From: Nitrosovibrio sp. Nv6
GTDB taxonomy: Bacteria > Pseudomonadota > Gammaproteobacteria > Burkholderiales > Nitrosomonadaceae
Assembly: GCF_900110495.1 (NCBI RefSeq)
Contig: NZ_FODX01000003.1
Coordinates: 62,001 to 126,000 of the forward strand
Reading direction: 5' to 3'
DNA: 64,000 bases
Shown: positions 7,020-63,998 of the stretch, one piece after another
Numbering within the stretch: the stretch's first letter is position 1
Layout: each line of letters begins with the position of its first letter
Made by a program: the position numbers and the translations under genes
The notes under the pieces: model-generated
Told to the model about the DNA's origin: nothing
Databases searched by the model: none
The model's input: only the letters and a program-made list of their open reading frames with translations

Positions 7020-7241
7020 TATACAGTGACTTATATTTTAAATTCTTTCCATTACTGTATAAGTCAATTCAGATTTAATCATCCGAAGTGCTTTTCCCGA
7101 TGGCAGTTTGGGCACAAGGCGATGGCGTTGGCTACCGCAGAATAATGGTGTCTGACCCCATTTCCTTGCCCTGAGGAGCCTTAGCCCAATCCTCGTGATG
7201 CAGGAAAACACCATCCGCTTCTGATAATGTCCGCCGTGGTG

Positions 7242-8246: not shown

Positions 8247-8636
8247 ACCTGTACTCCTATGAAAATTGCTGAGGTAGTTTCCAATCAGAGATTCTCGTCA
8301 GTCCGGCGATCGAACTCGAAGCGCAGCCGGGAGCGGTCTCGCCAAGAACCGGTGTACGAACAGGGCCACCAAAACAAGCAATAGTTGTCGGGATGCGGGG
8401 AACATATGATTTCGCTTTTCATATATTCCATCCGTGCGTTAAATCACATTAGAGGCAAGTATGTAATAGTGTAATAGGGGCAAACTGAGCTAACCCGGCT
8501 TTTCCTCGCATGTACGGGCAGTCTCGGAAGATGGGAAAAACCATGGTCTGAGAATCATCTAGCCGACCTCCCGCCGCAGGCTGCGGTGGAGTAAAAAGCA
8601 AGGTGCGAACTTTGTAATTTACTCAAGGAGGCCGAA
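8247..8636. other. Intergenic region containing the IS left end
   Basis: This region separates the SDR gene from the transposase gene. No coding signal was found. The notable element is a hairpin at 8571-8589 (8-bp stem, loop GGC), within what is probably the left end of the IS110 element. The exact junction with host DNA is not visible. Confidence 0.4.
8571..8589 (+). repeat. Hairpin in IS110 left end
   Basis: CCGCCGCA at 8571-8578 pairs with TGCGGTGG at 8582-8589 (one G-T pair) around a 3-base loop. It lies just upstream of the transposase ribosome site (AAGGAGG). Confidence 0.6.
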
Positions 8637-9650
8637 ATGAGATTCTGTGGCATAGACCTGCATTCCAACAATAGCGTAGTAGTGATTACGGATGAAATGG
8701 ACAAGGTTCTCGCCAGTCGACGCTGCCCGAACGATCTGAGCAGGATTGTTGCGGTACTGGAACCGCACAAGGCCGAACTGGCGGGGGTGGTAGTCGAATC
8801 CACCTACAACTGGTACTGGCTGGTCGATGGATGGATGGCGGCAGGCTATGAGGTCAAGCTGGCCAACACCGTTGCCATGAAGCGCTACGATGGGCTCAAG
8901 CACAGTGGTGACGAGGATGATGCTGCCCATCTGGCCCACCTGCTACGGCTGGGCATTCTGCCCACCGGATATATTCATCCGCCATCCGAGCGGGGGCTGC
9001 GGGATTTGGCGCGCAAGCGTATCCAACTGGTGCGCTCGCGCACACAGCATGTACTGGCGGTCGAAAACATCCTGGCGCGGGAACTGGGCGCAACCCTGTC
9101 GAGTAACGCAATCAAGCGACTGAGGATTGAACAGGTCGATACGTTGAGGTTATCTGCCGATGTGGCGCTGGCGGTAAAGTCGAATGTGGCCGTCATCGAG
9201 GTACTCAACCGGGAAATCGAACGATTGGAAGTCTGCTTACTGGAAAGTGCCAAATTGCGTCCCGAGTATGCATTGCTCAAGAGCATTCCCGGCATCGGTG
9301 AAGTATTGGCAATTGTGATCATGCTGGAGACGGGCGATATCAGCCGTTTTGCGCAGGTTGGCAATTTTGCTTCATACGCCCGCTGTGTAGACAGTGCCCA
9401 TTATTCCAACAGCAAGAAAAAAGGCGCAGGCAACACCAAAAACGGCAATGCCTACCTGGTGTGGGCTTTCATTGAAGCAGCCAACCTTGCCCGGCGTTTC
9501 AGTGATGAGGCCAGACGCTTCTTTGACAAGAAGAAAACCAAAACCAACAGCGTGGTGGCCACCAAGGCGCTGGCACACAAGCTGGCGCGGGCGAGCTACC
9601 ACATCCTGAAGGAGAAACAGCCGTTTGACGTGAAGCGCTGTTTTGCCTGA
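8637..9650 (+). CDS. IS110-family transposase
   Basis: A 337-residue DEDD transposase/recombinase. The N-terminal RuvC-like domain has Asp in FCGIDLHSNN, Glu in VVVESTYNWYWL and acidic residues in KHSGDEDDAAHLAHLL. A central helical region follows. The C-terminal domain contains SIPGIGEVLAIVIMLE and YARCVDSAHYSNSKKKGAGNTKNGN, where the family has its catalytic serine. A strong ribosome site (AAGGAGG) precedes the ATG. The gene is intact, so the element may still be active. Transposition in this family is guided by a structured RNA from the element. Confidence 0.95.
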   Translation: MRFCGIDLHSNNSVVVITDEMDKVLASRRCPNDLSRIVAVLEPHKAELAGVVVESTYNWYWLVDGWMAAGYEVKLANTVAMKRYDGLKHSGDEDDAAHLAHLLRLGILPTGYIHPPSERGLRDLARKRIQLVRSRTQHVLAVENILARELGATLSSNAIKRLRIEQVDTLRLSADVALAVKSNVAVIEVLNREIERLEVCLLESAKLRPEYALLKSIPGIGEVLAIVIMLETGDISRFAQVGNFASYARCVDSAHYSNSKKKGAGNTKNGNAYLVWAFIEAANLARRFSDEARRFFDKKKTKTNSVVATKALAHKLARASYHILKEKQPFDVKRCFA

Positions 9651-9654
9651 TGAG

Positions 9655-9870
9655 GTTAAAGGTGACAGCAGGTCAGCCAGCAATGGGGACTGGATGCGAG
9701 CCAGCGAGTCTGAATGGAGACCTGCTGCCACCGCCTGAGTGTTGTACTCCGGGTCGTCTGCCGGGGTGAGCCAGTTGGGGACTGGACGCTTAAAAGCGAG
9801 CCACAGGTCTGTGATCATTGCCCGGACACCTTGGCGGCACCAACGTTTCTCTGGGGCGATTTGCGCCAGG
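9655..9870 (+). ncRNA. Candidate IS110 bridge RNA region
   Basis: Directly after the transposase stop, bases 9661-9674 pair with 9719-9732 (14 positions, one mismatch), enclosing a 44-base loop. A second unit further on has the hairpins CCAGT..ACTGG (9770-9784) and CGCTT..GCG. The two units share similar blocks: GCCAG, GGGGACTGG and GCGAGCC occur in both. A tandem two-loop layout is what is expected of a bridge RNA, which has a target-binding and a donor-binding loop. In IS1111-type members this RNA lies at the right end. Transcript ends are guesses. Confidence 0.45.
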
Positions 9871-9980
9871 GCAGCGCCAGAATATCGGACACTGCTTGAT
9901 CCACATGGGTGACAGGCACGACTCGATCGTAGCCAATAATGAGGAAACGGGTTCGACTGGAAACAACAAACAGGTCTGCA

Positions 9981-10015
9981 AAAAGAAAACCCCGCTGTCA
10001 AAAAAAACAGCAGGG
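9981..10015 (-). terminator. Likely rho-independent terminator, leftward
   Basis: On the minus strand CCCTGCTGT (10015-10007) pairs with ACAGCGGGG (9998-9990) with one mismatch, and is followed by TTTTCTTTTT. It would stop leftward transcripts such as that of the small gene at 10248-10427. Confidence 0.6.
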
Positions 10016-10247
10016 AAAATTTGGTTTCGCCCTTGACACGGGGGCGGCTAATGGGTGTCCCTATTATTCATGGGAGACAAAAAAGCCCAGAACGGACTAA
10101 CCGTGGCTGGGCATGGGTCAATATCGGAGAGGACGGACCCAAGATGTTTACAGAAGGGGTAAATGTAAACACCGGAAATGATTTTCTCATAACGATATGT
10201 CGAATCTATGACGCGCAATCACTTTAGCCGATAAATTTCGGCAAAAT

Positions 10248-63390: not shown

Positions 63391-63998
63391 ATTTCAATCC
63401 TCGCCCGGCGGTTTGGCCGGGCGCTACCAGCCTCATGCAGCGTGTTACCTTTTGTTGTGGGGTTTCAATCCTCGCCCGGCGGTTTGGCCGGGCGCTACCG
63501 AGCCGAACAGGTTACCCATCCCTACAATAGCGGGTTTCAATCCTCGCCCGGCGGTTTGGCCGGGCGCTACTGGAGATATTCCGCGCAAATCCCGGCCAAC
63601 TTTCCGTTTCAATCCTCGCCCGGCGGTTTGGCCGGGCGCTACCCTTTTACTTGGACGTACCATGGGCAGCGATACAGTTTCAATCCTCGCCCGGCGGTTT
63701 GGCCGGGCGCTACCTAATCGCGGACTTATTTCCTCCAGCGCGCAACTGTTTCAATCCTCGCCCGGCGGTTTGGCCGGGCGCTACCGAAGGATATCGAGCT
63801 GCATGGCCTTGGCCACCGTGTTTCAATCCTCGCCCGGCGGTTTGGCCGGGCGCTACTATGAGATATCAAGGTAGGCAACTCCCTTGCGCGGTTTCAATCC
63901 TCGCCCGGCGGTTTGGCCGGGCGTACCCGGTTCATGCCGCCATACGTAAATATGGTGTTGAGTTTCAATCCTCGCCCGGCGGTTTGGCCGGGCGCTAC
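63391..63998 (-). CRISPR. CRISPR array, nine visible 37-bp repeats
   Basis: Repeats start at 63391, 63462, 63534, 63606, 63677, 63748, 63820, 63891 and 63962; all are 37 bp except the one at 63891, which has lost one C (36 bp). Spacers are 34-35 bp and all different. On the plus strand the repeat begins GTTTCAATCC, holds an 8-bp hairpin stem (CGCCCGGC with GCCGGGCG) and ends GGGCGCTAC. Read on the minus strand it ends ATTGAAAC, the usual crRNA 5' handle, so transcription is probably leftward. The first repeat (63391) has A instead of G at its outer base, fitting the old trailer end; the leader should lie to the right of the window. No cas gene is visible. Confidence 0.97.

What the first reader, a model, noticed from the sequence alone, without database searches (positions are those of the whole stretch)
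9655..9870. Possible bridge RNA of an intact IS110-family element
Seen: directly after the transposase, a 14-bp imperfect stem (9661-9674 with 9719-9732) and a second hairpin unit share blocks (GCCAG, GGGGACTGG, GCGAGCC). Known: IS110 elements use a two-loop bridge RNA; IS1111-type members keep it at the right end. Inference: this region is the guide RNA, with its two loops giving target and donor specificity.
Basis: partly seen in the sequence, partly recalled or inferred. Interest (0 to 1): 0.6.

Follow-up and report, generated by a model that had tools for sequence, protein, structure and literature searches.

The report
Three-loop guide RNA of an insertion sequence
A small jumping gene carries, just behind its enzyme gene, an RNA that spells out where the element inserts; comparing dozens of relatives shows which letters do the reading and points to an extra, third reading loop.

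Summary
The stem and repeated blocks are real. The region is a bridge RNA of an intact IS110-superfamily element with IS1111-type layout. In 59 non-redundant elements, loop m1 (9661-9732) pairs with eight right-flank and five left-flank target bases; agreement stops at +9 and -6 and holds in disjoint pairs of close relatives. Between the target halves lies a dinucleotide core, usually TG; uninterrupted sites have exactly two bases there (11 of 11). Two-base handshake guides after the core in m1 and m3 track LE+2 and RT+1/+2, on the opposite strand and side from IS621. I saw no such third loop in the papers' parts that I read. New variant of a known kind.

The parts
8549..10057 (+). whole insertion sequence, both TG core copies included (1509 bp)
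   Evidence: ends set by where relatives' similarity stops and by flank/guide agreement; one full copy found in its genome
8549..8550 (.). left copy of the TG core; left target (LT) lies before it, left end (LE) after it
   Evidence: left core TG in 75, CG in 1 of 76 parsed rows; uninterrupted sites
8556..8568 (.). left subterminal inverted repeat CATCTAGCCGACC
   Evidence: 9 of 13 match to the right repeat here, by eye; TAGCCGGCC shared by both ends in many relatives
8637..9650 (+). DEDD/serine recombinase (transposase), 337 aa; D7, E54, D92, D95, S257
   Evidence: Pfam PF01548 and PF02371, NCBIfam NF033542, fold match to IS621 and ISCro4, residue counts
9661..9732 (+). module m1: target-binding loop with its outer stem
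9682..9689 (+). right target guide (RTG), complementary to RT+1..+8 (C9690 to the core G)
   Evidence: window copy 7 of 8 plus one G-T wobble; family 37 to 57 of 59 per position
9706..9710 (+). left target guide (LTG), same letters as LT-5..-1
   Evidence: window copy 3 of 5; family 38 to 56 of 59 per position
9711..9714 (+). core TG plus two-base handshake guide that reads LE+1,+2
   Evidence: second base equals LE+2 in 54 of 59, 15 of 20 close pairs; first base invariant; in the window copy the second base (A) does not fit LE+2 (G)
9758..9837 (+). module m2: third, target-loop-like internal loop; outer stem 9758-9768 / 9827-9837, inner stem 9787-9791 / 9794-9798
   Evidence: coordinates mapped
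9774..9781 (+). m2 right arm (RTG2), weak agreement with the right target
   Evidence: RT+1 38 of 55, other positions weak or none; 18 of 55 rows were cut short by my parser
9805..9811 (+). m2 left arm (LTG2, AGGTC) plus TG; the bases before TG track LT-1 and, less, LT-2
   Evidence: LT-1 50 of 55, LT-2 40 of 55; 17 of 21 and 9 of 20 close pairs
9840..9915 (+). module m3: donor-binding loop, multi-branched
   Evidence: hairpin 9855-9867 has 5 of 6 pairs with changes on both sides
9845..9851 (+). right donor guide (RDG) GTTTCTC, complementary to core G and LE+1..+6 except +5
   Evidence: window 6 of 7 by eye; family: LE+2 26 of 52 (13.9 expected), LE+3 no signal, LE+5 1 of 52
9905..9909 (+). 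left donor guide (LDG) ATGGG, same letters as the right end before the core
   Evidence: right end reads ATGGG in 58 of 59; identity only, too constant for covariation
9910..9913 (+). core TG plus handshake guide AC that reads RT+1,+2
   Evidence: RT+1 45 of 53, RT+2 49 of 53; 8 of 13 and 3 of 5 close pairs; in the window copy only the second base fits
9915..9934 (+). conserved hairpin after the donor loop
   Evidence: 6 pairs, 100% of cells paired, 2 pairs with changes on both sides
10033..10038 (+). TTGACA; could be the -35 box of a promoter formed when the ends join in the circle
   Evidence: sequence; TTGAC recurs at this place in the relatives shown; function inferred from IS621/IS1111
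10042..10054 (.). right subterminal inverted repeat
10056..10057 (.). right copy of the core; right target (RT) starts at 10058
   Evidence: right core TG 70, CG 5, AG 1 of 76 rows

Best explanation
The region downstream of the recombinase encodes a bridge RNA of about 290 nt. Its first loop (m1) binds the target: the 5' arm pairs with the top strand right of a TG core, the 3' arm with the bottom strand left of it. Its last loop (m3) binds the joined element ends (the donor) in the same arrangement. Two further bases after the core in each 3' arm pair with the partner DNA once bottom strands are exchanged (handshake). The recombinase swaps strands at the core and inserts the element without duplicating target sequence. 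A middle loop (m2), built like m1, reads the one or two target bases next to the core on the left; I think it assists capture or exchange of the left target half. Shown here: stems of m1, m2 and part of m3; guide-target covariation of m1; handshake covariation; m2 coupling; two-base core at uninterrupted sites. Inferred: RNA expression, protein binding, most donor pairing, order of strand exchange, circle intermediate, role of m2.
For: (59 rows left after removing duplicates from 72): RTG fits RT+1..+8 in 53, 56, 57, 56, 42, 45, 46, 37 of 59, then 12 at +9; LTG fits LT-1..-5 in 56, 51, 45, 42, 38 of 59, then 18 at -6; all thirteen beat shuffles within clades (z 5.1 to 9.3). Disjoint close pairs that differ in the DNA base, RNA fits both: LT-1 20 of 22, RT+3 16 of 18, against 1 of 28 at RT+9 and 2 of 26 at LT-6. 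Handshakes: same call, five control pairings all 0. Mean fit to own target 10.58 of 13 against 5.33 to other rows' targets; own target best or tied for 41 of 59; 11 of 11 uninterrupted sites have exactly two bases (TG 4, CG 6, TA 1) between the halves. Stem covariation. Fold match to IS621 (TM 0.68/0.75) and ISCro4. A solo right-end fragment elsewhere in the genome has flank ACCTCATT, which fits the RTG at 6 of 8 plus a wobble and the m3 handshake at 2 of 2 (by eye).
Against: No RNA-seq or activity data. The window RNA folds no better than shuffles. The window copy fits its own flanks imperfectly: 10 of 13 (two of the other 58 targets fit its guides better), each handshake 1 of 2, and its m2 left arm fits better (4 of 5) than its m1 left arm (3 of 5). 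Donor ends are nearly invariant, so most donor pairing cannot be tested; RDG at LE+3 shows no signal (28 of 52, 29.2 expected; 0 of 10 pairs). For the IS1111 element ISEc11 an 82-nt RNA with only the target matches was enough (PMC11187229, parts 1-5 read), so a donor loop may not always be needed.
Confidence: 0.9

Rival explanations
1. Only m1 is a guide (a short seekRNA of about 80 nt, as reported for ISEc11); m2 and m3 are processing or stability elements and the ends are recognised by the protein.
For: PMC11187229 (parts 1-5 read): 70-100 nt RNAs co-purify and 82 nt sufficed for ISEc11; m1 here has about that length.
Against: m3 holds the right-end sequence and a left-end complement, and the two bases after its core follow the right target (45 and 49 of 53; 8 of 13 and 3 of 5 close pairs). 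A pure scaffold would not track the target.
Confidence: 0.08
2. m2 is a non-functional relic of a duplicated target loop; its agreement with the target next to the core is shared ancestry.
For: m1 and m2 share architecture and sequence blocks; agreement fades after two bases (LT-3 4 of 25 pairs); 45 of the 59 rows fall in one broad clade, so within-clade shuffles are not free of relatedness.
Against: m2 stems are held by compensatory changes in the 36 sequences aligned, and the base before its TG changes with the target in 17 of 21 disjoint close pairs; a relic would not follow.
Confidence: 0.3
3. The region is an ordinary 3' untranslated hairpin or terminator of the transposase mRNA.
For: It directly follows the stop codon and is rich in stems.
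Against: Loop letters follow the insertion flanks, which a terminator has no reason to do; no plus-strand terminator-like site was found in 9600-10120 (two on the minus strand).
Confidence: 0.01

Closest known systems
IS1111-family insertion sequences and their seekRNA (ISEc11, ISKpn4, ISPst6, ISPa11)
   Same: guide RNA region downstream of tnp, subterminal inverted repeats with 7- and 3-bp extensions, top-strand match (RTG) 5' of the bottom-strand match (LTG), no target duplication
   Different: transposase lacks the GL-P----S(t)G motif (reads SN); a donor loop with handshake guides shown by covariation, and a third loop; the one IS1111-group transposase compared, IS4321, aligns over only 125 aa at 26%
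IS621 / ISCro4 bridge RNA and recombinase (IS110 group)
   Same: target loop plus donor loop, dinucleotide core, handshake guides (IS621), recombinase fold
   Different: bridge RNA is in the right end, guide order in each loop reversed, core TG instead of CT, handshake with the right-hand bases (+1,+2) of the bottom strand instead of the left-hand bases of the top strand; extra loop m2
IS1111 bridge RNAs predicted by Durrant et al. (ISPa11 and others, PMC11208160)
   Same: location in the right end; donor nucleotides in a multi-branched loop in many, as its text says
   Different: cannot be compared in detail: figures were not available to me

Membership tests
IS110 superfamily (RNA-guided DEDD recombinases) | DEDD catalytic residues and C-terminal serine | tested here: met
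   D7 65 of 65, E54 68 of 70, D92 72 of 72, D95 72 of 72, S257 72 of 72 (rows with a gap at the position left out); Pfam and NCBIfam hits
IS110 superfamily (RNA-guided DEDD recombinases) | overall fold of IS621-type recombinase | tested here: met
   AlphaFold2 model pLDDT 88.9; Foldseek to 8wt6 E 5.6e-14, TM 0.68/0.75
bridge RNA | target loop whose two arms pair with opposite strands on either side of a core | tested here: met
bridge RNA | donor loop pairing with the joined element ends | tested here: inconclusive
   identity/complementarity present; donor ends vary too little for a full covariation test (LE+2 positive, LE+3 negative); handshake bases positive
bridge RNA | RNA expressed and bound by the recombinase | not testable with these tools
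   no RNA-seq or binding data
IS1111 family | non-coding guide region downstream of tnp | tested here: met
IS1111 family | subterminal inverted repeats of 11-13 bp with 7- and 3-bp extensions | tested here: met
   by eye: extensions 7 and 3; arms imperfect, 9 of 13 matched in the window copy
IS1111 family | top-strand guide 5' of bottom-strand guide | tested here: met
IS1111 family | GL-P----S(t)G motif in the C-terminal domain | tested here: not met
   R249, V251, S253 conserved, and S257-N258 (N in 71 of 72) instead of S-G
IS1111 family | transposase closest to IS1111-group transposases | tested here: inconclusive
   only IS4321 compared: 26% over 125 aa; no tree built
Rfam family | match to a described RNA family | tested here: not met
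   none here at gathering score; best match E 0.031 is on the other strand and far below its gathering score

The most novel reading that the evidence does not exclude
This clade uses a three-loop bridge RNA: besides target and donor loops, a conserved third loop must match the target base(s) adjoining the core, acting as an extra checkpoint or acceptor during strand exchange, in a system whose handshake runs on the strand opposite to IS621.
Probability: 0.5. Interest if true: 0.75.

Novelty: new variant of a known kind. Interest (0 to 1): 0.55.

Why it matters
Bridge RNAs are being developed as programmable DNA-insertion tools. Two 2024 papers describe IS1111-type elements differently: a full bridge RNA with target and donor loops, or a short target-matching RNA that suffices. 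Here natural variation supports a donor loop with handshakes in an IS1111-type layout. It also gives the programmable positions (eight right, five left, plus handshakes) and a testable third loop that any engineering of this group would have to respect.

Tried and rejected
Folding energy of the window RNA: no excess stability; dropped as evidence. RNAalifold on the 36-row alignment missed the m1 outer stem because its arms are misaligned between clades; replaced by the arm-swap test. A scan of viral contigs gave no relative. An empty site for the window copy was not found: in the 23 genomes of the genus the best right-flank match (L113) has a Y1-type transposase gene (PF01797) where the left flank should be, and a pattern for the joined target found nothing in its own genome. 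Core hypotheses CT and single C were rejected because they do not fit both ends; TG fits both and the uninterrupted sites. First parses of the guides were faulty and were redone. An unbiased column scan of m2 and m3 against flanks and ends: m2 against LT-1 was the top hit of 3823 m2 tests, but many LE columns also scored z 4 to 7 from relatedness, so I rely on the close-pair test. The base pair after the TG of m2 follows neither RT+1 (0 of 13 pairs) nor LE+2 (1 of 20).

Rows dropped before the counts: 84 elements found; 3 not parsed (L045, L098, L107); 5 in which the right-end pattern hit the internal m3 copy (L028, L037, L038, L080, L214); 4 misparsed near-duplicates (L172, L201, L202, L209); 13 duplicates. 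In some searches the left boundary of one row (L047) was one base off through a correction of mine; one search repeats the tests with the right boundary, and its numbers are the ones given (changes of at most one row, or two pairs, per count). The register rule for guides ending in GT uses RNA letters alone, but I set it after looking at some flanks; before it, RT+1 fitted 26 of 39 rows.

Full report
What is there. ORF 8637-9650 encodes a 337-aa protein with both IS110 domains (Pfam PF01548, PF02371; NCBIfam NF033542 'IS110 family RNA-guided transposase'). Its predicted structure (pLDDT 88.9) matches the IS621 and ISCro4 recombinases over nearly the full length. Catalytic residues are kept (D7 65 of 65, E54 68 of 70, D92, D95 and S257 72 of 72), but the residue after the serine is N (71 of 72), not G. 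One full copy was found in its genome and a right-end fragment of about 215 nt on another contig (L007).

Ends and core. One scan of genome contigs gave 377 relatives, of which the best 80 were kept. Upstream and downstream sequences stop agreeing at TGAGAATCATCTAGCCG on the left and CGGCTAATGGGTG on the right. These are subterminal repeats with extensions of 7 and 3 bp, as described for IS1111 (PMC11187229, parts 1-5 of 9 read). In nine genomes, reached through the Pseudomonas relatives, the pattern TAAATAAATC-N(0-4)-TCCCCTTT, the joined flanks of several elements, occurs 11 times in 4 genomes, each time with exactly two bases between: TG 4, CG 6, TA 1. The element is therefore inserted at a dinucleotide core. 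The left copy is TG 75, CG 1 of 76 rows, the right copy TG 70, CG 5, AG 1; the greater variety on the right would fit a right copy taken from the target. At 7144-7170 the window holds an uninterrupted AATGGTGTC-TG-ACCCCATTTCCTTGCC, nearly the site in which the relative L039 sits; it scores best (13 of 15) among 18,886 window sites with a TG or CG core for the window's own guides.

Target loop. I took 84 elements with both ends, parsed the guides and kept 59 (drops are listed under tried and rejected). Counts here are, which repeats with one row mended. The 5' arm of m1 is complementary to RT+1..+8 in 53, 56, 57, 56, 42, 45, 46 and 37 of 59; at +9 it is 12 of 59. The 3' arm equals LT-1..-5 in 56, 51, 45, 42 and 38 of 59; at -6 it is 18 of 59. 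All thirteen exceed shuffles of flanks within clades (z 5.1 to 9.3). Because one clade holds 45 of the 59 rows, I also used disjoint pairs of close relatives (55% identity or more) that differ in the DNA base. The RNA fits both members at RT+1..+8 in 10 of 14, 3 of 5, 16 of 18, 9 of 12, 12 of 20, 14 of 24, 11 of 21 and 8 of 25 pairs, and at LT-1..-5 in 20 of 22, 16 of 21, 15 of 26, 13 of 26 and 7 of 23; at RT+9, RT+10, LT-6 and LT-7 it is 1 of 28, 0 of 28, 2 of 26 and 1 of 25. An earlier analysis of 39 rows gave a similar picture. This is the natural reprogramming expected of a bridge RNA.

Handshake. The second base after the core in m1 equals LE+2 in 54 of 59 (22.8 expected), 15 of 20 close pairs. 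The two bases after the core in m3 equal RT+1 and RT+2 in 45 and 49 of 53 (25.9 and 42.0 expected), 8 of 13 and 3 of 5 close pairs; five control pairings gave 0 of 17, 0 of 17, 0 of 21, 0 of 5 and 0 of 13. In IS621 the handshake guides adjoin the right-hand guides and pair with the two bases left of the core on the top strand (PMC11208158, passages read). Here they adjoin the left-hand guides and would pair with the two bases right of the core on the bottom strand. With the reversed order of target guides reported for IS1111 this makes the layout a mirror image; that bottom strands exchange first is my inference.

Donor loop. m3 carries GTTTCTC, complementary to core G plus LE+1..+6 with one mismatch in the window copy, and ATGGG-TG, the letters of the right end. 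The right end reads ATGGG in 58 of 59, so covariation cannot test it; RDG against LE+2 is positive (26 of 52, 13.9 expected; 9 of 18 pairs), LE+3 is not (28 of 52, 29.2 expected; 0 of 10 pairs) and LE+5 is almost always mismatched (1 of 52). The loop is multi-branched, as the bridge RNA paper says of many IS1111 predictions (PMC11208160, section 12 and passages read; figures not available).

The third loop. Its outer and inner stems have changes on both sides at 14 of 15 pairs in 36 sequences, so it is a real RNA module. Its arms resemble those of m1. The base before its TG equals LT-1 in 50 of 55 (23.6 expected) and tracks it in 17 of 21 close pairs; LT-2 gives 40 of 55 and 9 of 20; LT-3 22 of 55 and 4 of 25; LT-5 29 of 55 and 5 of 22; LT-6 and LT-7 nothing. 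Its right arm is at best weakly related to the target (RT+1 38 of 55, within-clade p 0.004, with 18 of 55 rows cut short by my parser). By eye a similar module exists in two elements whose transposases are 31-33% identical (L236, L237). I could not assign its role. The gradient from the core outward suggests that it touches the left target half next to the core.

The window copy itself. RTG fits 7 of 8 plus one wobble, LTG 3 of 5 (10 of 13), each handshake 1 of 2; the solo fragment's flank fits the m3 handshake 2 of 2. The copy may sit in a near-cognate site, or its flanks may have drifted.

What it targets. Right flanks are of the NCCC kind in 30 of 59. Y1-type transposase genes (PF01797, the REP-associated kind by recall) lie beside such a site in L224 and in the locus L113 that shares the window's right flank. 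Targeting of REP repeats by IS110/IS1111 elements is known (PMC1525189, listing only; PMC11187229 for ISPa11).

Literature. Searches for IS1111 with bridge RNA, seekRNA, handshake, IS110/transposase, bridge recombinase, target-binding loop and donor-binding loop found no description of a third guide loop in the listings or in the parts read; most subscription papers, preprints and all figures were out of reach.

Noticed in passing
window 63391-63998 (-): CRISPR array: eight Rfam CRISPR-DR9 matches running to the window's edge.
   Followed up: no
window 7144-7170: Uninterrupted copy of nearly the site occupied in relative L039, and the best predicted target in the window for this element's own guides.
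   Followed up: partly
L007 1501-1715 (own genome, contig C6): Solo right-end fragment, 99% identical to window 9845-10060, beginning at the right donor guide, with another transposase-like ORF next to it (the ORF was not searched).
   Followed up: partly
window 9982-10044 (-): Sub-threshold match to Rfam anti-hemB (E 0.031, 19.7 bits against a gathering score of 49.5) and a minus-strand terminator-like hairpin at 10015-9990: a possible antisense transcript at the right end.
   Followed up: no
L043, L049, L169, L171, L204, L213 right flanks: Shared TC(A/G)NCGAT(C/T) next to the core and GTCGA about 20 bases on; these copies may sit in the end of another repeated element. L040, of the same cluster as L043, has the first motif only.
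   Followed up: no
L034 right end: A second, partial right end in tandem, with its own target-like flank, directly after the first.
   Followed up: no
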